From Pseudonocardiales bacterium (lineage in GTDB: Bacteria; Actinomycetota; Actinomycetes; Mycobacteriales; Jatrophihabitantaceae), in the NCBI GenBank assembly GCA_030840445.1, contig JAVEEN010000110.1, forward strand, positions 1 through 36,066: a DNA stretch of 36,066 bases, given 5' to 3'. The translations under genes were made by a program, and so were the position numbers. This document shows positions 19,410 through 28,275 of the stretch, one piece after another. The notes under the pieces were generated by a model. The model was not told where the DNA came from and did no database searches. It saw only the letters and a list, made by a program, of their open reading frames with translations. Numbering within the stretch: position 1 is the first letter of the stretch; the number at the start of each line of letters is the position of its first letter.

Positions 19410-19439
19410 ACCGCATTGCAATCTGAACCCATAGCGTGG

Positions 19440-19480
19440 CCCGAACCCTCGGCCCCCAACGAACAGGCCGGGGGTTCGGG
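19440..19480. terminator. Hairpin terminator between ohr and the convergent transporter operon
   Basis: A 15-bp stem with one mismatch (CCCGAACCCTCGGCC against GGCCGGGGGTTCGGG) and an 11-base loop. It lies 30 bases after ohr and 77 bases beyond the end of the binding-protein gene. Confidence 0.85.
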
Positions 19481-19486
19481 CAGCAC

Positions 19487-19550
19487 AATGCCAACAGCTA
19501 GGTCAGCCAAACAGCTCAGCCAGCCAAACAGCTAGGCCAGCCAGCTAGCC
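19487..19550. repeat. Degenerate 17-bp tandem repeat downstream of the binding-protein gene
   Basis: CAGCCAAACAGCT occurs at 19504 and 19521 with a 17-base period, flanked by more diverged copies. The stretch is non-coding and fills the space between the terminator and the stop of the binding-protein gene. Confidence 0.65.
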
Positions 19551-19557
19551 CAAACGG

Positions 19558-20520
19558 TCAGCCAGTCTTGGCTAGGTCGGCGATCGTCTTCAGGCCGTAC
19601 TTGTCGGCAGTCGCCTTCGTGACGACGATCGCGTCGCTGTCCTGAGCCTGGGCCTTGTCGAGAGCGATCAGGTTCGACGGCAATGCCTTGACCAACGCCG
19701 CGTAGACATCGTCCGGGCTTGTCGCGGTCGCGCTCTTGTCGATGAACTGCAGGATGGTCCCGGTGTACTCGGCGAACAGGTCTATCGATCCGTCCTTCAG
19801 ACCTGCGTAGTACTTCTCTCGGCTACCGATGTTCAGGGTGGTCTTGATCGAGGCACCCTGTGCCTTCAAAGCCTCGGCGTAGATGTCGGCGAGAATCACG
19901 TTCTCCGGGAAGTTGGCCGAGCCCACGGTAAGCTTGACCCCCGAGGCCGACGAGCCGGTACTGGACAGGCCGTTGTCGGTGAGCCACTGCTTGGCCACTG
20001 CGTCAGGATCCTGCTTCTGGTTCTGCACCTTCGTCAACAGCTGGCTGAGGCCGTCAGTGGTCAGCTTGGCCTGGATGCCGTTGAGAATCTTCTTGACCCC
20101 GTCGGTGGCCTTGGCCTTGTTGATGATCGGCACGATGTTCTGGGCCGCGAAGTTACTCTTCGGGTCCTCGAGGATCACGAAGTTGTTGGCCTGGATGGAC
20201 GGGTCGGTGGTGAACAGATCCGCTGCATCGATCTGACCGTTCTTCAGAGACGACACGGTCACCGGTCCGCCCGTGTCGGTCACGGTGTACTTGCCGAAGA
20301 CCACACCGTAGTTTTTCTTCAGGCCGGGCAGGCCATCGGTACGGGTCTTGAACTCCGGGGGACCACCCATGATCAGCTTGCTGGCAATGGTGGTCGTGCC
20401 AGCCGAACCCGAGCTGGTGCTGCCGCCCGTGCTGGTCTTCGAGCTGTCTGCGCCACAGGCGGAGAGCCCGAGAGTGAGGGCGGCCGCCGCGGCGGCAAGC
20501 ATCAAGGTCTTGCGATTCAT
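19558..20520 (-). CDS. Circularly permuted OpuC/OsmF-type quaternary-amine ABC transporter substrate-binding lipoprotein
   Basis: A 320-residue lipoprotein expected to bind a betaine-like solute outside the membrane. The signal peptide ends in the lipobox LSAC (Cys22), followed by a Ser/Thr/Gly linker. Residues 45-184 then correspond to the canonical C-terminal half (LIMGGPPEFKTRTDGLPGL, IDAADLFTTDP, FVILEDPKSNFAAQN). After a second linker SSTGSSASG (186-194), residues 196-320 are the canonical N-terminal half (VGSANFPENVILADIYAEAL, NIGSREKYYAGLKDGSIDLF, EYTG) and the protein stops at KTIADLAKTG, the point that normally runs into the GGPPEF segment. Both halves look complete, so the fold is probably kept with new termini. 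The gene follows the permeases after 68 bp, with a GGAG site. Confidence 0.9.
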   Translation of the reverse strand: MNRKTLMLAAAAAALTLGLSACGADSSKTSTGGSTSSGSAGTTTIASKLIMGGPPEFKTRTDGLPGLKKNYGVVFGKYTVTDTGGPVTVSSLKNGQIDAADLFTTDPSIQANNFVILEDPKSNFAAQNIVPIINKAKATDGVKKILNGIQAKLTTDGLSQLLTKVQNQKQDPDAVAKQWLTDNGLSSTGSSASGVKLTVGSANFPENVILADIYAEALKAQGASIKTTLNIGSREKYYAGLKDGSIDLFAEYTGTILQFIDKSATATSPDDVYAALVKALPSNLIALDKAQAQDSDAIVVTKATADKYGLKTIADLAKTG

Positions 20521-20588: not shown

Positions 20589-21347
20589 TCAGATGGCAGC
20601 CACCTCCGCTTGCGTCACACTTGCCAGCCTGGGGTCGGGTAGCCGCTTCTTTGAGAACCGTCCCGTAAGGCCGCGTGACACGGTGTAGCGCTGGACGAGA
20701 TACAGCAACAGATCCGCGACCAGCGCGAGTGCGGCAACCAGAACGCCACCGCCGATCATCTGCGGGAAGTCCTGCTGGGCCAAGCCGTCGTAGATGAACC
20801 GGCCCAATCCGCCGAGCGGCAGGTACGAGGCGATGGTCGCGGTAGCGATGACCTGCAGGGTCGCGGACCGGAATCCGGAGAAGATCAGCGGCAGGCTGCA
20901 GGGCAGTTCCACCTTCAGCAGTACCTGCTTCCCGGTCATGCCCATGCCTTCGGCCGCGTCCCGGACCGCCGGATCGACGTTCTCTACGCCGGCGAAGGTG
21001 TTGGACAGGATGGAGGGGATGGCCAGCACGATCAGCACGATCTCCGTTGGAATCAGGTAGCCCGTGTCGGTTCGCCCGTAGAAGTGCGGCGCGATAATGA
21101 CGGTGAGCAGGACCAGCACGCCAACCGTCGGCAGCGCTCGGAGCGTGTTGGCGGCTGCGATCAGCCATTTGCCACGGCCGGTGTGTCCGATGACCAGCCC
21201 CAGCGGCAGTGCGATGATGAGAGCCACCAGCAGGGCGAAGGCGCAGAAACGCACATGCGCCGCCAGCTGGGTGGCGATCCCGGTGTCGAAGCGAGTGTCC
21301 TTCCAATGGGCGGGGTCGTTCAGCCACGTGAATACCTCACCGATCAT
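20589..21347 (-). CDS. Quaternary-amine ABC transporter permease (OpuCB/OpuCD-like), second permease
   Basis: A 252-residue integral membrane permease with about six hydrophobic segments and the permease coupling-loop region VRDAAEGMGMTGKQVLLKVELPCSLPLIFSGFRSATLQVIATATIAS, typical of the OpuC/YehW-YehY family. The track ORF extends 202 codons upstream in a frame antisense or out of frame to the first permease. The ATG at 21347, which overlaps the upstream stop (ATGA), is the credible start. With the preceding permease it should form the membrane heterodimer of the importer. The C-terminal 20 residues are basic and hydrophilic. Confidence 0.93.
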   Translation of the reverse strand: MIGEVFTWLNDPAHWKDTRFDTGIATQLAAHVRFCAFALLVALIIALPLGLVIGHTGRGKWLIAAANTLRALPTVGVLVLLTVIIAPHFYGRTDTGYLIPTEIVLIVLAIPSILSNTFAGVENVDPAVRDAAEGMGMTGKQVLLKVELPCSLPLIFSGFRSATLQVIATATIASYLPLGGLGRFIYDGLAQQDFPQMIGGGVLVAALALVADLLLYLVQRYTVSRGLTGRFSKKRLPDPRLASVTQAEVAAI

Positions 21348-22042
21348 GACCGCACCGCCTTTCGCCAGGGGGTCAGCAAGGTGTTGAGGATGATCACGAT
21401 GCGGTCGAGCACCAGCGCCAGCAGCACGCAGAGCACGATGCCGAGCACGATCGGCGGGTAGTACGGCCCGGTGGTCGAATTCTGGAACCCGAGCGTGAAG
21501 AGCTGCCCTAGGTTCGACATGCCGATCGTGCCCGAGACGGCCACGATGCTCACGTTGGCGACGAGTGCCACGCGGAGACCGGCCGTGATGACCGGGACGG
21601 CGATCGGCAGTTCCACCCGGAAGAACCGGCCCAATGGCTTGAACCCGATTGCCGTCGCTGCCTGGACGGTGTCTTCGGAGACCGAGGCCAACCCGTCGGC
21701 CACCACGCGCACGAGCAGCGCAATCGAGTACAGGGTGAGCGCGATCGGGACCTGTTTCGGGTCGAGGGACTTCAGCCCGAACAAGGGCGGGATCAACACG
21801 AACAACGCGATCGACGGGATGGTGTAGATCAGCCCGGTCAGCGAGATCAGTGGCGGGTACACGAATCGGTACCGCCGAGCCAGCCAGCCCAACGGCAGCG
21901 CGACGAGAAGGCCTATCACTACCGGGACGACGGACAGCCAGGTATGCGACCACAGCCAGCTCAGGTCGGTGCTGCGATGGTCCATGAAGTAGCCCCAGAA
22001 GTGCAGGGGAGACGAACTTGACGAGGTGGCGAGTGCGGTCAT
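21344..22042 (-). CDS. Quaternary-amine ABC transporter permease (OpuCB/OpuCD-like), first permease
   Basis: A 232-residue permease with about six hydrophobic segments. It shows the OpuC-family stretches SLTGLIYTIPSIALFVLIPP and VQAATAIGFKPLGRFFRVELPIAVPVITAGLRVALVANVSIVAVSGTIG, the latter containing the loop that contacts the ATPase. It starts three bases after the ATPase stop and overlaps the second permease by 4 bp, so the three proteins are translated in close coupling. Confidence 0.93.
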   Translation of the reverse strand: MTALATSSSSSPLHFWGYFMDHRSTDLSWLWSHTWLSVVPVVIGLLVALPLGWLARRYRFVYPPLISLTGLIYTIPSIALFVLIPPLFGLKSLDPKQVPIALTLYSIALLVRVVADGLASVSEDTVQAATAIGFKPLGRFFRVELPIAVPVITAGLRVALVANVSIVAVSGTIGMSNLGQLFTLGFQNSTTGPYYPPIVLGIVLCVLLALVLDRIVIILNTLLTPWRKAVRS

Positions 22043-22045
22043 GCC

Positions 22046-23176
22046 CTACCTCCGTTCCGACCCGGAGCCGGTCACGGCTGCCGCTCCCGGCCTGCGCTTC
22101 TCGATGAGCCCGAGAACCTCGGCAGCGGTGATGGATCCCAGAAGTGTTCCGTCGGAGTCGACGACCACACCGCGCCCGGACGGCGAGGAGAGGCAGGCAT
22201 CCAAGGCCTCGCGTAACGAGCCGCCCTGAGTCGCCAGGGTGCCGCCCCGATACAGCATCTCGGCGGTGACTGTGGTGTGGTCCGGTCTGAGTTCAGCCAG
22301 GTTCAGCCAGCCCTGCGGGACGTTGGCAGCGTCCACGACCAGGATCCAGTTGTCCAGGTCGGCACGGCTGGGAACGGGGGCGCCCATGGTCACGGTTTGC
22401 TCGTCGTGCACGGCAAGCTCACCAACGGTGGCGAAGGTGAGGGCCCGATACCCCCGGTCGCGCCCGACGAAACCGGCGACGAACTCGTCCACCGGTCGGC
22501 TGAGCAGTTCGGCCGGGGTGGCCAGCTGGGCCAGATGACCCCCGACCCGCAGCACCGCCACCTGGTCGCCGAGCTTGATGGCCTCGTCGATGTCGTGCGT
22601 GACGAACACGATGGTCTTGCCGAGATCGCTCTGCAGCCGGAGGAACTCATCCTGGAGCTGATCGCGCACGACCGGATCGACGGCCGAGAACGGTTCGTCC
22701 ATCAGCATCACGGGTGGATCCGCGGCAAGCGCCCTGGCCACGCCGACGCGCTGCTGCTGACCGCCCGAGAGCTGGGAGGGATAGCGCTTGGCGAACCTGG
22801 GATCCAGTCCCACCCGCTCGATGAGTTCCATCGCGCGGGCCCTAGCCTGCTTCTTGTCGGTGCCCAGCAGGTACGGCACGCTGGCGACGTTGTCGATGAT
22901 GGTGCGGTGCGGGAACAGCCCGGCGTGCTGGATGACGTACCCGATGCCACGCCGGAGTTGGGCCGCGTCGACCTTGGTGACGTCCTGGTCGTCAATCAGG
23001 ATTCTCCCCGCAGTCGGCTCGATCATCCGGTTGATCATCCGCAGGCTGGTGGTCTTACCGCAGCCGGACGGACCCACCAGGACGGTGATCTGGCCAGAGG
23101 GGGCGACGAAGTCCAACTCGTCCACGGCCACGGTGCCGTCGGGGTATCGCTTGGATACCGATTCGAAGCGGATCAC
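22046..23176 (-). CDS. Quaternary-amine ABC transporter ATP-binding protein (OpuCA/ProV-like)
   Basis: A 376-residue ATPase energising the importer. Walker A GPSGCGKTT (35-43), Q-loop Gln83, signature LSGGQ (136-140), Walker B VMLMDE (156-161) and H-loop His194 in FVTHDIDEA are all intact. The last 150 residues include a CBS-like segment (SGRGVVVDSDGTLLGSITAAEVLGLI), as in OpuCA-type ATPases, where CBS domains can sense ionic strength. Only one clear CBS unit is visible, the first being degenerate. GTG start overlapping the iclR stop (GTGA), so regulator and transporter form one operon. Confidence 0.94.
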   Translation of the reverse strand: MIRFESVSKRYPDGTVAVDELDFVAPSGQITVLVGPSGCGKTTSLRMINRMIEPTAGRILIDDQDVTKVDAAQLRRGIGYVIQHAGLFPHRTIIDNVASVPYLLGTDKKQARARAMELIERVGLDPRFAKRYPSQLSGGQQQRVGVARALAADPPVMLMDEPFSAVDPVVRDQLQDEFLRLQSDLGKTIVFVTHDIDEAIKLGDQVAVLRVGGHLAQLATPAELLSRPVDEFVAGFVGRDRGYRALTFATVGELAVHDEQTVTMGAPVPSRADLDNWILVVDAANVPQGWLNLAELRPDHTTVTAEMLYRGGTLATQGGSLREALDACLSSPSGRGVVVDSDGTLLGSITAAEVLGLIEKRRPGAAAVTGSGSERR

Positions 23177-23946
23177 GTTCCAGTCTCCTGTCGAGGGGTG
23201 CGCGCCGGTCCCGGCGAACGTGGTGGGGCAATGCCGAGCTGAGTGCCGAGTGACCGGGCTTCGTCGGCGACGATGTCTCCGTAGCGGTGCAGGGTCTTGT
23301 CATCGATCCGATAGGTCGGACCGAGCAGGCTGAGGGCACCGGCGACGCCGCCGGGCCGCCGGATCGGAGCCACGATGGCCGTCACATCCGGTTCCAGCCG
23401 ATCGCGTTCGGCGACGTACCCAGCCGGGCCGATGTCGTCGAGCAATGCGCGCCCGACCGCCAAGTTGGCCAGCGGTAGCGAGCGACCGACCCAGCTGGTG
23501 TGCCGCACCGCGTGGGTGCCTTCGACCATGGCGATGTAGATAGCGGTCTCGTTGGGCCCGAGGATGGCGAGGTAGGCCGACTCGCCGGTGGCCGCGACCA
23601 TGCGGCGCAGCCCGGGCTCGGCCAGGCGCACGATGCCCTGTCGACCGAGGGCGGATGCGCCCAGCTGGATCAGGCGGGCGCCGGCCCGGAAGGAGCCGTC
23701 GTAGTCGCGATCCACGAAGCCGGATCCCTCGAGGGTGCGCAGCAGGCGCAACGCGGTACTGGCCGGCAACTGGGCTCGGCGGGCGCACTCGGACAGGCTG
23801 ATGGAGTCCTCGGCACACACCTCGGCGAGCAGTGCCAGGGCGCGGTCCACCGTGCGGGTAGTGCTGTTGGACGCGATCGCACCCGACACATCACCTGACA
23901 TATCGCCCGACTCGCCGGTCGATATCGCTGCGGAGAGTCCAGTCAT
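23173..23946 (-). CDS. IclR-family transcriptional regulator, first gene of the transporter operon
   Basis: A 257-residue regulator with an N-terminal winged helix (about 30-90; TVDRALALLAEVCAEDSISLSECARRAQLPASTALRLLRTLEGSGFV) and an IclR effector-binding domain (about 100-245; AYLAILGPNETAIYIAMVEG, LPLANLAVGRALL). The first 25 residues are a polar, methionine-poor extension; ATG at 23946 is used, with an in-frame ATG at codon 16 as an alternative. It is co-transcribed with the ABC transporter and divergent from the ammonia-lyase-like gene. It most likely controls both, with the transported compound or its breakdown product as effector. Confidence 0.92.
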   Translation of the reverse strand: MTGLSAAISTGESGDMSGDVSGAIASNSTTRTVDRALALLAEVCAEDSISLSECARRAQLPASTALRLLRTLEGSGFVDRDYDGSFRAGARLIQLGASALGRQGIVRLAEPGLRRMVAATGESAYLAILGPNETAIYIAMVEGTHAVRHTSWVGRSLPLANLAVGRALLDDIGPAGYVAERDRLEPDVTAIVAPIRRPGGVAGALSLLGPTYRIDDKTLHRYGDIVADEARSLGTQLGIAPPRSPGPARTPRQETGT

Positions 23947-23970: not shown

Positions 23971-24041
23971 ATAGAAGACGCTTGCCACTGCGCGGTAGAG
24001 TCGCACGGCGGCGGCGTTGGGGGAAGGCTTTGCGGCAAAGT

Positions 24042-24055
24042 TTTCAATATTGAAA
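24042..24055. promoter_or_regulatory. Candidate IclR operator, perfect palindrome TTTCAATATTGAAA
   Basis: A perfect 14-bp AT-rich palindrome in a GC-rich genome, midway between the divergent iclR and lyase genes (95 bases from one start, 63 from the other). Its form resembles known IclR-family operators such as TTTCA...TGAAA types. The only IclR gene in the window is adjacent, so it is the natural candidate for binding and joint control. Confidence 0.6.
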
Positions 24056-24118
24056 CAACCACGTGGGGCTGACAACGGGTGCTACGAGGCCAGCATTCCC
24101 CTGCAACCGGGAGTCGTC

Positions 24119-25612
24119 ATGATCATCGACGGGCGGACGTTGAGCGTTGCCGACCTCCGAGCCGCTGCCGTGCGGCCGGCGGGCGTGTCCCTTTCCGACG
24201 ATGCCCTGGCACGAGCTGCCGCGTCCCATGAGTTCGCACGGCTTGCCGGCGTCCGTCGTCCGATCTACGGTCGCTCGACCGGTGTCGGTGCGAACCGGAC
24301 GGTCAGCATCGCCGACGATCCGGGGGCGCTCCGGCAGGCGGCGCTCGGACTGTTGCGCAGCCACGCGACGTCGGCCGGCGAGCTACGGGCACCCGAGCGG
24401 GTCCGGGCCATGCTCCTCGTGCGGCTCAACCAACTGGCCGCCGCCGGCAGTGGCGCGGACCCGAGATTGCTCGAGGTCCTGGCCGACCTGATCAATGCCG
24501 ATGCACTGCCCCCGATCCGGGAACTGGGCGGGATCGGCACCGGTGATCTGTCCGCGCTCGCCACCACCGCCTTGGCGATCGAGGGCGAGGTCCCCACGCT
24601 GGGTCCGGGCGGGCAGCCGGGTGGGTACCCGGCTGGGTACCCGGCAAGGCCGGCGTTCCGGTTCGGCTTGGGCGACGCGCTGCCCTTTCTGAGCAGCAAC
24701 GCGGCGACGCTGGCCGATGCGGCGCTCGGCCTGGACGGGCTGCAACGGCTGGCCGAAGCGGTGGTGGTCGTCGCGGCGCTCAGTTTCAGCGCGGTGGACG
24801 GCAACGACGAGGCATTCGCCGGTGCGGTCGAGCAGGTGACGCCGTTCGAGGGCGCGCGCTGGGTCTGCCGCTCGGTCCGCGCGATGGTCGACCCGGTGCC
24901 GGCCGCTCGCATCCAGGACCCGTTCGGGTTGCGCACGCTGCCTCAGGTGCACGGCGCCTTCATCGATGCGCTGGCTGCCCTTGAGCGAACGGTCCTGGCC
25001 CTGATGAACACCTCGTCGGAGAACCCGGTGCTGTCACCGGAGCTCGGGGTGGCTCATCACGGTGGGTTCCACGCGGCCTACCTGGCCCAAGCCCTGGACG
25101 CGGTGGCACTGGCGGCCGCGCAATCCGCCCAGCTCTCGTTGGCGCGCCTGACCATGCTGGACGAACCTGCGTTGACCGGCCTGGCGCCGTTTCTCGGGGA
25201 CGGTACGCCGGGCGCGTCCGGCACGATGATCGTGGAGTACGTGTCGGCCTCGGCTCTGGCGGCGTTGCGGGCGCTGGCGGTGCCGGCCAGTCTGCAGACC
25301 GTCACGCTGTCGCGCGGCGTCGAGGAGGACGCCAGTTTCGCGTCGCTGGCAGCTCGCCAGGTGCTCGACTCGGTAGCCCTGTTCCGCACCGTCCTGGCCG
25401 GCGAGTTGGTGGCCGCGGTGCGCTGCATCCGGCTGCGCGGGCTGACGCCTTCGGTCCTAGGGCCCGTCCTCGATGCGGCGGCTGAACTCGGCGGCGAGGC
25501 CGCAGACCGGGATCTCACCGGCGACCTCGACGTCGCCGGGCGCTTGGTGGACGCCCTGCCCGGCTTGCTCGCTCAGATCATGTCGTCCAGCGGACGAAGC
25601 TCGTCGGCATAG
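24119..25612 (+). CDS. Histidine/aromatic ammonia-lyase-like protein with altered MIO motif
   Basis: A 497-residue member of the HAL/PAL superfamily, which eliminate ammonia (or related leaving groups) from amino acids. Family landmarks are Tyr50 in IYGRSTGVGAN, LRSHATSAG, QDPFGLRTLPQVHGA, NTSSENPVL, and VTLSRGVEEDASF where the catalytic Glu region lies. The cofactor-forming Ala-Ser-Gly of typical enzymes is Gly-Thr141-Gly here (GGIGTGDLSALA), so the MIO group may form unusually or not at all. A Gly/Pro/Tyr-rich insert follows (about 162-180). The ATG at 24119 has CGGGAG five bases upstream; the longer track start would include the palindrome. It is divergent from iclR, and its 3' end overlaps the cupin gene by 40 bp. 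The substrate is unknown. Confidence 0.88.
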   Translation: MIIDGRTLSVADLRAAAVRPAGVSLSDDALARAAASHEFARLAGVRRPIYGRSTGVGANRTVSIADDPGALRQAALGLLRSHATSAGELRAPERVRAMLLVRLNQLAAAGSGADPRLLEVLADLINADALPPIRELGGIGTGDLSALATTALAIEGEVPTLGPGGQPGGYPAGYPARPAFRFGLGDALPFLSSNAATLADAALGLDGLQRLAEAVVVVAALSFSAVDGNDEAFAGAVEQVTPFEGARWVCRSVRAMVDPVPAARIQDPFGLRTLPQVHGAFIDALAALERTVLALMNTSSENPVLSPELGVAHHGGFHAAYLAQALDAVALAAAQSAQLSLARLTMLDEPALTGLAPFLGDGTPGASGTMIVEYVSASALAALRALAVPASLQTVTLSRGVEEDASFASLAARQVLDSVALFRTVLAGELVAAVRCIRLRGLTPSVLGPVLDAAAELGGEAADRDLTGDLDVAGRLVDALPGLLAQIMSSSGRSSSA

Positions 25613-26148
25613 GACACCGACTCGCGACGCAACACTCCGGTCGGGCCGACGGTGTATTGGCCCATCCGCCACAGCGGTGGCGAGTAGGCGTGGATCGACA
25701 CGCTGCCCGGGTCGCGTCCGGTCAGCCGGTGGATGTGATCGGGCCCGAAGGAGTACGCCTGCCCGGCGACCACATCGGTGGCCAGGCTGGGACGGTCCAC
25801 CGCGAGGTTGTGTTCGACCAGGCGACCCTGCACGACGGCAATCGCGCCTGAAGAGATGTCGTGGTCATGCCAGCCGGTGTCGTTTCGGGGTGTCCAGCAC
25901 AGTACCCAGATATCGACGTGCGAGTCCCGGTACAGCGAGACGTAGTGCCGTTTGTCGTCGTCGAATGCGATGTGCTGGGTCCACAGGTCCGGCTGCGCGG
26001 CGATGGCCGAGGCCAACTCCAGCAGTTCTCGCCGGTCGAGGTCACGGTTGGGCAGCGTCTGGAGGGTGAGCTGATCTGCGACCGCGCAAGCGGTTGCCCC
26101 GTCAGCCCCGCCGCGGCCCGGCGAGCTGGTATCCATTGCGTTGTTCAT
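25573..26148 (-). CDS. Cysteine dioxygenase-like cupin protein
   Basis: A 191-residue cupin of the cysteine-dioxygenase family, non-haem iron enzymes that oxidise thiols to sulfinates. The iron-binding pattern is visible: His94 and His96 in GWHDHDISSG and His140 in FGPDHIHRL, with IHAYSPPLWRMGQY towards the end. Actinobacterial members of this branch are usually only called cysteine dioxygenase family, so the thiol substrate is not certain. The ATG at 26148 follows the amidohydrolase stop directly (TAGATG), so the two are coupled. The tail overlaps the lyase 3' end by 40 bp. Confidence 0.87.
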   Translation of the reverse strand: MNNAMDTSSPGRGGADGATACAVADQLTLQTLPNRDLDRRELLELASAIAAQPDLWTQHIAFDDDKRHYVSLYRDSHVDIWVLCWTPRNDTGWHDHDISSGAIAVVQGRLVEHNLAVDRPSLATDVVAGQAYSFGPDHIHRLTGRDPGSVSIHAYSPPLWRMGQYTVGPTGVLRRESVSYADELRPLDDMI

Positions 26149-27132
26149 CTAGCGGATTCCCTTCAGGAGTCGGGCCGGGTTGGTCACGGAGATGGCGTGC
26201 CAGGCGGCTTCGCCCAGCTGTGGATCGGTGGGACCGGCGTACGGGCGGTCGCTGCCCAGCACGATCGGGTCGAGGCCCAGCGCCCGGACGAGGGCATCGA
26301 TGCCTTGCCGCCCGTACGAGGACGTGTCGACGTAGACGTTCTTCTGCAACACGGCCGAACTACCGCTGCGGGCCTCGAATCGCTCGTGGTGGACCGCCGC
26401 CAGGCCTGCACCGGCCACGAAGCACACTCGCAGGTCCGGGAGCAGGCTCGGGCCAGCCACCTGCCAGGCCCACCATGCGGCCTGCAACTGGGCCGGATAG
26501 TCGACGACCGCCGGCCACCAGGACGGGGTGCCCGGCTCGGGTGGCCCGCCTCGCCGGCCGCTCGTCGAGCCGACCGGCCCGGGGTGGACGAGAACCGGCT
26601 TGTTCTGCCGTTCGCAGCAGCGCAGCACCGCGGCCATTCGCTCGACTCCGCCCGGATCGGCGAGCTGGGTGGCACTGATCTGAAGGCCGACGAACGTGTC
26701 CGACGTCAGGTCCTGGCTCAATGCGCCGAGATCGGGATCGATCTCGCTCACCGCGGCCCAGCCGGCGAAGGGTTCGGGCAACTCGCGGACGCCGTCCCGC
26801 CAGCCCTCCAGCAACGGCTCAGCCTGGGCGGGCGGGAGTGATTCGATGCCGAGCGGGGTGGACATGGACAGCAGTACCCGAGTGCAGTCGCTGTCCAGCC
26901 GGCTCCGGCGCGACAGGTCATGATCGGCCGGATCGACTTGGTACGGGGCCTCGCCTGCCGTGATGAGTGTCCAGTCACGCAGCATCGGCGCTTCGGTCCG
27001 CCGCCGCAGGCCCTCGAGGAGCTGTTCGGGCCAGAGGTGCTGATGTACGTCGGTGCGCTCCGCGGCGCGCAGCGGTTTGGTCGCCGCCGGTCGGACCGCT
27101 GCCGTGGTGATCGGTGACGCCAGCGAGGTCAC
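26149..27132 (-). CDS. Amidohydrolase-family (amidohydrolase 2-like) protein
   Basis: A 327-residue metal-dependent hydrolase or decarboxylase-like TIM-barrel protein. It has the metal motif TDVHQHLWPE (His30, His32), KPVLVHPGP, the GAGLAAVHHERFEAR helix and the terminal Asp motif LGSDRPYAGP. The first 24 residues are a Thr/Ala/Pro-rich extension. GTG start with GGAGG about eight bases upstream. It is the first gene of a two-gene operon with the cupin, transcribed away from lacI across a gap with two LacI-type operators. The reaction cannot be told from sequence. Confidence 0.85.
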   Translation of the reverse strand: MTSLASPITTAAVRPAATKPLRAAERTDVHQHLWPEQLLEGLRRRTEAPMLRDWTLITAGEAPYQVDPADHDLSRRSRLDSDCTRVLLSMSTPLGIESLPPAQAEPLLEGWRDGVRELPEPFAGWAAVSEIDPDLGALSQDLTSDTFVGLQISATQLADPGGVERMAAVLRCCERQNKPVLVHPGPVGSTSGRRGGPPEPGTPSWWPAVVDYPAQLQAAWWAWQVAGPSLLPDLRVCFVAGAGLAAVHHERFEARSGSSAVLQKNVYVDTSSYGRQGIDALVRALGLDPIVLGSDRPYAGPTDPQLGEAAWHAISVTNPARLLKGIR

Positions 27133-27189
27133 CGGAGCACCTCCGCAGCTGGCATTGCCCTACCTCGCAGAAATCGCCACAAAGAAGTC

Positions 27190-27203
27190 GTGAACCGCTT
27201 CAC
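27190..27203. promoter_or_regulatory. LacI-type operator, site 1
   Basis: GTGAACCGCTTCAC, a near-perfect palindrome with central CG as in LacI-family sites. It is identical to site 2, which begins 25 bases later. It lies 57 bases upstream of the amidohydrolase start. Confidence 0.75.
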
Positions 27204-27214
27204 TGATACGTTTA

Positions 27215-27228
27215 GTGAACCGCTTCAC
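27215..27228. promoter_or_regulatory. LacI-type operator, site 2
   Basis: Second identical GTGAACCGCTTCAC, placed 36 bases before the lacI start codon. With site 1 it positions the regulator to control both the divergent amidohydrolase operon and its own gene. Confidence 0.75.
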
Positions 27229-27252
27229 TGCGACGCTGTCAAGCCTGCCGTT

Positions 27253-27258
27253 TACTGT
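27253..27258 (+). promoter_or_regulatory. Candidate -10 (TACTGT) for leaderless transcription of lacI
   Basis: TACTGT fits TANNNT and ends six bases before the GTG start at 27265, the same spacing as at the aldo/keto reductase and lutA genes. No ribosome site precedes the GTG. Confidence 0.45.
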
Positions 27259-27264
27259 CAATGC

Positions 27265-28275
27265 GTGTCGCAGAAGCAGCGCCGGGTGACCTTGCGCGAT
27301 ATCGCTGACGAGACCGGGCTGTCGCTGGCTGCGGTCTCCTACGCGATGCGCGGGCTCCAACTACCTCTGGAGACCCGGCAACGGGTTCAGGAGGTGGCCG
27401 ATCGCCTGGGCTATCAGGCCGATCCGATTGCCCGGGCACTGGCCTCCGGGCGCACCGGGTACGTCGGCGTGCTGTGCGGCTCACTCGGTGACCTGTGGCA
27501 GCAGGGTATCGCCGCCGCCCTCGGGCGCGGACTTCTGCAGGCCTCGCGGCAGGCGCTGATCGTCGATGCCTCCAACGACCCGGCCCTGGAGGCCTCGCTG
27601 GCCGCGCAACTGGTCGATCAACGCGTCGACGCTCTGATCTGCCTGCCGATCGACCCGGCCGCCGAGCATTGGCGTCAGGTCGCCGAACGCACGGTGCTGG
27701 TTTCCATCGGGGACGCACTGCCCGGGGTCTCCACGGCCGCTGAGGTGGTGTTCGACAACGAGGCCACCGTGTCCAGTGCCCTGGAACAACTCGCGCGGCT
27801 GGGACATCGAAATATCGCGGTCCTGACCCCCGCGACCATCGCCACACCGGATCGTCCGGCCGAGGTCGTCGTGCACCGGCTCGCCGCCGAGCTCGGAATC
27901 CGAGCGACCCTGCACACCTCCCCGTACGAACTGGACGGTGCGCACGCCGTTGCCCGAGAGATCCTGGCCGGCGCTGATCCGCCGACCGCCTTCTTCTGCC
28001 TGGCCGACTCGATGGCGTACGGGGTCTATGCCGCAACACGCGAGCTGGGGCTGCGAGTGCCCGAAGACCTCTCCGTCCTGGGCTACGACGACAACCCGGT
28101 GTCGGGTCTGCTGACCCCGCCGCTGTCCAGCTACCGCTGGCCGATCGAGCTGTTGGTCAGCTCCGTCGTGGAACGGACGGTGCGGGCGATCGATGAGGGC
28201 AAACACAGCCGGCGGAAGGTGCTGGTGCCCATTGCACAGCCCCGGCAGTCAGTTGGCCCACCAAAATCTCGCTGA
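27265..28275 (+). CDS. LacI-family transcriptional regulator
   Basis: A 336-residue regulator. The N-terminal LacI helix-turn-helix and hinge ([43 protein letters not shown]) is followed by a periplasmic-binding-like effector domain with [40 protein letters not shown] and [26 protein letters not shown] at 27265 places the HTH at the usual position; the longer track start would overlap the operators. It probably represses the divergent amidohydrolase-cupin operon and itself, and being 17 bases from sdaA may control that gene too. The effector is not predictable. Confidence 0.9.

What the first reader, a model, noticed from the sequence alone, without database searches (positions are those of the whole stretch)
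19558..20520. Circularly permuted substrate-binding protein in an OpuC-type ABC importer
In the usual OpuC/OsmF/ProX-like proteins the segment with GSANFPE, GSREVYY and EYTG comes first and runs through TIADLA into the GGPPEFKTR half. Here the lipobox and linker lead straight into GGPPEFKTR, and the GSANFPE half follows after a Ser/Gly linker, ending exactly at TIADLAKTG. All blocks are present once, only their order is rotated. The internal linker SSTGSSASG looks like a second mature lipoprotein N-terminus, which fits tandem duplication followed by loss of the outer halves. Domain-order differences are known elsewhere among betaine-binding proteins, but I do not recall this permutation in this subfamily.
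Basis: partly seen in the sequence, partly recalled or inferred. Interest (0 to 1): 0.85.

Follow-up and report, generated by a model that had tools for sequence, protein, structure and literature searches.

The report
Circularly permuted betaine-type binding protein
A lipoprotein that catches a nutrient for a membrane pump has had its two halves swapped end to end, while close relatives in the same operon keep the normal order; the swap is real, arose in several bacterial lineages independently, and gives the same order already known in one solved Bacillus protein (OpuAC).

Summary
The 320-aa lipoprotein at 19558-20520 (minus) matches every solved ProX/OpuCC/OsmF/EgtUC protein in two rotated pieces, while the unpermuted ortholog from a same-genus genome, in the same operon, matches them in one piece. 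It is not an assembly error: the same order occurs in about 30 public genomes, including closed or near-closed ones and named isolates (Modestobacter, Streptacidiphilus, Marmoricola, Catenulispora, Nostocoides). Permuted and unpermuted forms occupy the same operon slot (ATPase, two permeases, SBP), often beside an MIO-less histidine-ammonia-lyase-like gene. Trees of the SBP, of each half, and of the ATPase plus permeases fit one origin for this clade. A second clade (L149-L155) was permuted at the same loop independently, and a third (L026-L030) at another site. The predicted fold best matches B. subtilis OpuAC collinearly, so this protein re-created an order already known in that distant relative; by sequence it is not an OpuAC. 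The swap makes lobe 1 continuous and moves the lipid anchor to lobe 2. Pocket residues are unchanged from unpermuted orthologs, so uptake of the same, still unknown, ligand is most likely. Tandem duplication with loss of the outer halves is plausible but not shown.

The parts
20455..20520 (-). Signal peptide and lipobox (residues 1-22, Cys22)
   Evidence: LSAC lipobox read from the ORF; residues 1-40 have low pLDDT in the model
20389..20454 (-). Low-complexity tether, residues 23-44, now attached to lobe 2
   Evidence: sequence; pLDDT under 50 for residues 1-40; lobe assignment from EgtUC domain borders (PMC9732360) through the alignment (inference)
19963..20388 (-). B half, residues 45-186: most of lobe 2 (GGPPEFKTR...), hinge 2, and the former C-terminal helices of lobe 1
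   Evidence: aligned to ProX 134-273 and EgtUC 138-274; PF04069 positions 115-256
19936..19962 (-). Internal linker, residues 187-195, joining the old C and N termini
   Evidence: TGxxAxG pattern conserved across nearly all of the main permuted clade; sits between the last helix of the B half and the first strand of the N half in the model
19561..19935 (-). N half, residues 196-320: lobe 1 core (GSANFPE, GSREKYY, EYTG), hinge 1 and the first strand and helices of lobe 2 (IVVTK...TIADLAKTG)
   Evidence: aligned to the N-terminal halves of ProX/EgtUC/7s7w
20589..21347 (-). Permease B (BPD_transp_1), start at MIGEVFTW
   Evidence: Pfam PF00528; conserved next to permuted and unpermuted SBPs
21344..22042 (-). 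Permease A (BPD_transp_1)
   Evidence: Pfam PF00528
22046..23176 (-). ABC ATPase, ProV-like, with a weak CBS match near the C-terminus
   Evidence: PF00005 and weak CBS; TIGR01186 318.7 bits against cut-off 326.6
23173..23946 (-). IclR-family regulator, first gene of the operon
   Evidence: PF01614, PF09339; present in 14 of 23 permuted loci as labelled
24017..25612 (+). Divergent aromatic-amino-acid-lyase-family gene lacking the MIO-forming ASG triad (GIGTGDL); likely start at ATG 24119
   Evidence: PF00221; aligns with T. denticola ergothionase, which reads SIGEGDI at the same place; next to permuted and unpermuted SBPs, motif conserved

Best explanation
This is the lipid-anchored substrate-binding protein of a ProV/OpuC/OsmF-type ABC importer, circularly permuted in one loop of lobe 2. 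Shown: the halves are rotated, nothing is lost, and the old termini are joined by a short conserved linker. Shown: an unpermuted ortholog holds the same operon position in relatives, including the same genus, and the permuted operons form one lineage in the ATPase/permease tree. Inferred from mapping on EgtUC: lobe 1 becomes one continuous segment, lobe 2 becomes split, and the lipid anchor moves from lobe 1 to lobe 2, while the clamshell pocket and the two hinge crossings stay the same. Inferred: it works as an ordinary venus-flytrap SBP for the same ligand as its unpermuted orthologs. The ligand is probably a small carboxylated, possibly betaine-like compound handled by the neighbouring MIO-less lyase. 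Inferred: the permutation arose by tandem duplication (or an equivalent fusion) and trimming, then spread with its operon by vertical and horizontal transfer.
For: Rotated match to all 27 related PDB sequences against one-piece matches for nearly all of them with the unpermuted profile. AlphaFold2 model confident outside residues 1-40; Foldseek best hits are B. subtilis OpuAC, TM 0.60/0.70 over about 300 columns, with canonical-order EgtUC and Lmo1422 at only about 0.36-0.45. The unpermuted same-genus ortholog gives the opposite result: EgtUC/ProX/OpuCC at about 0.8-0.9, no 2b4l-type OpuAC in the top 50. Same order full length in G004-G007, G010 and G015, 7 genomes of another family and named genomes L069-L093. 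Same operon slot. Both halves fit one clade (AU p 0.70 and 0.86), as does the whole protein (p 0.42); 23 permuted operons are one side of a branch in the ATPase+permease tree (SH-aLRT 94). Pocket-lining positions are the same in permuted and unpermuted proteins.
Against: No ligand, transport or solved structure is known for any member. In the careful SBP tree three unpermuted same-genus proteins (L008, L010, L014) nest inside the permuted clade; holding the clade together is not rejected, but the single origin is not proved. No duplication intermediate was found next to this clade. The change of anchored lobe rests on mapping to EgtUC domain borders, not on a complex structure. Two aromatic cage positions of EgtUC are replaced (Y341 by D296, Y443 by Q127), so a quaternary-amine ligand is uncertain.
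Confidence: 0.9

Rival explanations
1. The rotated order is an assembly or sequencing artefact of a fragmented MAG.
For: The window's genome has 402 contigs.
Against: The same order is found full length in a single-contig genome (G005), in well-assembled isolates of Modestobacter, Streptacidiphilus, Marmoricola, Catenulispora and Nostocoides, and in MAGs from unrelated projects. The linker motif and cut position are conserved. GC3 is even across the gene and its neighbours.
Confidence: 0.01
2. Two halves from different paralogs were fused (domain shuffling) rather than one gene being permuted.
For: Many actinobacterial genomes carry several SBPs of this family.
Against: In separate trees of the N half and the B half the permuted proteins fit one group; the held clade is not rejected in either. 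The two halves are about equally close to the same unpermuted orthologs (52-63%).
Confidence: 0.04
3. The order was inherited from an OpuAC-like ancestor, so the protein is simply an OpuAC and no new permutation happened.
For: Same order as B. subtilis OpuAC; OpuAC is the best structural hit.
Against: A profile of the permuted proteins finds no OpuAC sequence in the PDB even at E up to 10, while it finds the ProX/OpuCC/EgtUC sequences. Orthologs at 52-63% identity in the same operon slot are unpermuted. hhalign with OpuAC is weak.
Confidence: 0.03
4. The permutation marks a change of ligand or docking partner and was selected for that reason.
For: The anchor moves to the other lobe (inference). 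Permeases and ATPase of permuted operons form their own lineage. Same-loop permutation happened again independently (AU p 2e-59 against one clade).
Against: Pocket-region residues are unchanged, the neighbour genes are shared with unpermuted operons, and co-inheritance of an operon explains the permease tree without selection.
Confidence: 0.15

Closest known systems
OpuAC of Bacillus subtilis (PDB 2b4l, 3chg, 5nxx)
   Same: Same overall order, second half before first half, in a lipid-anchored type II SBP; best collinear structural match, TM 0.60-0.70. OpuAC is itself rotated relative to L. lactis OpuAC.
   Different: No sequence relation found by profile search; the window protein's nearest relatives are unpermuted OsmF/ProX-like proteins, so the order arose separately.
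OsmF/YehZ, A. fulgidus ProX, OpuCC/OpuBC, EgtUC (cluster F-III SBPs)
   Same: Homologous over both halves, same fold after rotation, same type of ABC operon.
   Different: All solved ones have canonical order. The window protein lacks two of the four aromatic cage positions of EgtUC and its Lys242 and scores 79.8 against the OsmF cut-off of 400.
TpMglB-2 (Tp0684) of Treponema pallidum
   Same: A natural circularly permuted lipoprotein SBP, reported as a glucose-binding protein (PMC4990184).
   Different: Type I glucose-binding family, other cut position; strands of one lobe are moved and a fourth hinge crossing is added.
Circular permutants among glycine-betaine binding proteins, molybdate binding proteins and CysB (CPSARST)
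   Same: Published rotated relations including 2b4l, 1r9l and 1sw1 (PMC2395249).
   Different: Those pairs share under 24% identity; here permuted and unpermuted orthologs share 52-63% and the same operon slot.

Membership tests
Pfam PF04069 OpuAC superfamily of SBPs | Profile match above the gathering score | tested here: met
   175.8 bits against 21.2, in two stretches
Cluster F-III ProX/OpuCC/OsmF/EgtUC-type SBP | Homology over both lobes | tested here: met
   Both halves match the 27 solved sequences
Cluster F-III ProX/OpuCC/OsmF/EgtUC-type SBP | Canonical order, lobe 1 - lobe 2 - lobe 1 | tested here: not met
   Rotated order; canonical-order structures align at TM of only about 0.36-0.45
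Cluster F-III quaternary-amine binding | Aromatic cage (EgtUC F293, Y341, Y419, Y443) | tested here: not met
   Y252, D296, F103 and Q127 at these places, in permuted and unpermuted relatives alike (alignment, table)
OsmF equivalog (NF049931) | Score of at least 400 | tested here: not met
   79.8 bits
B. subtilis OpuAC | Rotated order with termini in lobe 2 | tested here: met
   Collinear Foldseek alignment over about 300 columns; the exact cut residue was not superposed
B. subtilis OpuAC | Sequence relation to OpuAC | tested here: not met
   Not found at E up to 10 by the profile of permuted proteins
ABC importer SBP | Lipoprotein encoded with cognate ATPase and permeases | tested here: met
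   Lipobox plus operon with PF00528 x2 and PF00005, conserved
ABC importer SBP | Binds and delivers a ligand | not testable with these tools
   Needs binding and transport assays
Ergothionase (for the neighbour gene 24017-25612) | HAL fold without the MIO triad | tested here: met
   PF00221; GTGDL in place of the ASG triad in the window, a G-T-x-D/E variant in close relatives
Ergothionase (for the neighbour gene 24017-25612) | Trimethylamine-lyase activity on ergothioneine | not testable with these tools
   The closest PDB hit by score is a histidine ammonia-lyase; ergothionase ranks third

The most novel reading that the evidence does not exclude
The lobe-2 loop before the GGPPE strand is a natural permutation hot spot: it was used independently by the window's clade, by the L149-L155 clade and by OpuAC, because opening the chain there keeps the pocket and both hinge strands intact while moving the lipid anchor to the other lobe, which alters how the tethered SBP meets its permease.
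Probability: 0.25. Interest if true: 0.72.

Novelty: new variant of a known kind. Interest (0 to 1): 0.52.

Why it matters
Natural circular permutations are usually seen between proteins too distant to compare closely. Here permuted and unpermuted orthologs share 52-63% identity, the same operon slot and even the same genus, and the event happened more than once in one family. That makes a rare test case: whether chain order, or which lobe carries the lipid anchor, matters for an ABC importer. The family also has a lead for ligand discovery, since the transporter is repeatedly paired with an MIO-less lyase. Annotation pipelines that expect collinear profiles may truncate or mis-score such proteins.

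Tried and rejected
Literature searches for permuted OpuCC/OsmF proteins found no paper; the only relevant papers were CPSARST and TpMglB-2. hhalign of the permuted or unpermuted profile against a single OpuAC sequence was too weak to fix the cut residue. No remnant of a lost half was recognised in the DNA around the gene; the repeats found are short and unrelated. One origin for all permuted proteins with this cut was tested and rejected: main clade plus L149-L155, AU p 2e-59 for the whole protein, 0.0014 and 0.005 for the halves. L139, first taken for a possible fused intermediate because of its long match, is two adjacent complete unpermuted SBP genes. Ergothioneine as ligand was considered from the EgtUC similarity and the ergothionase-like neighbour; the cage residues do not support an EgtU-type site, so it is kept only as one candidate.

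Full report
What is there. The minus-strand ORF 19558-20520 encodes a 320-residue lipoprotein. Pfam OpuAC hits it strongly but in two stretches. Against solved structures, residues 45-185 align with the C-terminal half of A. fulgidus ProX (134-273) and residues 196-319 with the N-terminal halves of the iSnFR precursors, EgtUC and their kin; in 7s7w the two pieces meet at the same chain residue. A profile of six permuted homologs finds the same 27 PDB sequences in two pieces. A profile of unpermuted orthologs finds those 27, and nearly all of them in one piece; the exceptions are fluorescent-protein fusions.

Not an artefact. The window's genome holds one such gene. Full-length collinear matches occur in four more genomes of the genus, including a single-contig genome, and in two other genera of the family; in 7 genomes of another family of the order; and in named genomes of Pseudofrankia, Marmoricola, Catenulispora, Nostocoides, Aeromicrobium, Streptacidiphilus and Modestobacter, besides MAGs. 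In 24 held genomes of the family, 7 carry the permuted and 11 the unpermuted ortholog at the threshold used; the genus itself is split.

Same locus, two orders. In the window the gene closes an operon of IclR regulator, ATPase, permease A and permease B, with a divergent lyase gene. In G017 and G022 (same family) the same gene string, on to the CDO-like, amidohydrolase and LacI genes, surrounds an unpermuted SBP, and G002, G003 and G008 (same genus) have the ATPase-permease-SBP core with an unpermuted SBP. Among the 80 named loci, ATPase and permeases accompany nearly all SBPs of both kinds, and the lyase is found next to many of both (the script's class label for L080 and L081 refers to a second SBP there; their main SBP is permuted).

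Structure. The AlphaFold2 model of the window protein is confident outside the first 40 residues. Its five best PDB matches are all B. subtilis OpuAC, aligned over about 300 columns at TM 0.60/0.70; the EgtUC and Lmo1422 chains listed, closer in sequence but in canonical order, reach only about 0.36-0.45. The unpermuted same-genus ortholog (L094) gives the mirror result: iSnFR precursors, Lmo1422, EgtUC, ProX and OpuCC at about 0.8-0.9, and no 2b4l-type OpuAC among the best 50 (entry 5nxy is titled OpuAC there but its molecule is OpuCC). The rotated order therefore equals the order of OpuAC, which is itself rotated relative to L. lactis OpuAC and other solved relatives (the query sequence was recalled and confirmed identical to 2b4l there).

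What changes mechanically. With the EgtUC domain borders (D1 233-331 and 445-506, D2 341-432; PMC9732360) and the alignment, window residues from about 48 to 118 and 296 to 319 form lobe 2, and about 129 to 286 form lobe 1. Lobe 1 is thus continuous, lobe 2 is split, the two hinge crossings remain, and the lipid tether is attached to lobe 2 instead of lobe 1. This is inference from mapping. The old termini are joined by a linker whose TGxxAxG pattern recurs in nearly all of the main clade, and in most members the new termini keep T-I-A-S at the start and I-A-D-L-A at the end.

History. A tree of 113 rotated sequences puts the main permuted group together apart from one long-branch unpermuted row that falls inside it. 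A careful tree of 79 nests three unpermuted same-genus proteins inside it, but holding the group together is not rejected (p 0.42), nor is it with either half alone (p 0.70 and 0.86). The independent ATPase+permease alignment (825 columns) puts all 23 permuted operons on one side of a branch (SH-aLRT 94). One origin with the operon inherited as a unit is the simplest reading; its spread over several families suggests horizontal transfer. Proteins L149-L155, from other families of the phylum, are cut at the same loop but belong to the CPxRPFC-type branch; one clade with the main group is rejected, so the same permutation happened at least twice here, and the OpuAC order is a further case. A third type (L026, L027, L028, L030) is cut between FSSDGxLA and LVVLEDD.

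Ligand. EgtUC positions F293, Y341, Y419, Y443, K242 and R379 correspond to Y252, D296, F103, Q127, A202 and R60. The window's residues are the rule in both permuted and unpermuted relatives. The permutation therefore probably did not change the ligand, but the site is not the published cage. The adjacent lyase family lacks the MIO-forming triad (GTGDL in the window), as does T. denticola ergothionase (PMC13405746 states that ergothionase lacks MIO). This suggests, without proof, that the importer brings in the substrate of that lyase.

Known or new. Permuted SBPs are known (OpuAC versus ProX, PMC2395249; TpMglB-2, PMC4990184). No paper in the held library was found that describes the permutation in this subfamily. 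I rate it a new variant of a known kind, valuable mainly as a natural permuted/unpermuted ortholog series with repeated events.

Noticed in passing
L026, L027, L028, L030 (SBP ORFs): A different circular permutation of the same SBP family: the protein starts near LVVLEDD and ends at FSSDGxLA, a cut in another place of lobe 2, with an extra Cys just before the new first strand and another after the SDLA helix in at least three members (possible new disulfide).
   Followed up: partly
L149-L155 (SBP ORFs): Independent permutation at the same loop as in the window, in the CPxRPFC-type branch of the family, in other families of the phylum; perhaps two events, since unpermuted L157 falls between them with weak support.
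   Followed up: partly
window 24017-25612, and lyase genes in L031-L045 and L070-L114: An MIO-less aromatic-lyase-family gene (GTGDL in place of the ASG triad, TGVGANR motif) repeatedly sits divergently next to this importer; resembles ergothionase but could act on another amine.
   Followed up: partly
window 25573-28275: Cysteine-dioxygenase-like, amidohydrolase and LacI-type genes co-occur with the importer and lyase in G005, G017, G022 and, in another arrangement, G034, which suggests one catabolic pathway.
   Followed up: partly
L139 5669-8360: Two adjacent complete unpermuted SBP genes, 77% identical: the kind of tandem pair from which a permuted gene could form.
   Followed up: partly
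L080 from 7835: A second, distant unpermuted SBP gene of the same family directly downstream of the permuted one in a Marmoricola genome.
   Followed up: no
window 19430-19560: Three copies of a 17-bp direct repeat (AACAGCTAGGCCAGCCA) just beyond the 3' end of the SBP gene, and an imperfect 25-nt inverted repeat at 19430-19490, perhaps a terminator.
   Followed up: no
L072 (Patulibacter MAG contig): A permuted operon very close to those of the window's genus in a MAG filed under a distant group; horizontal transfer or a misbinned contig.
   Followed up: no
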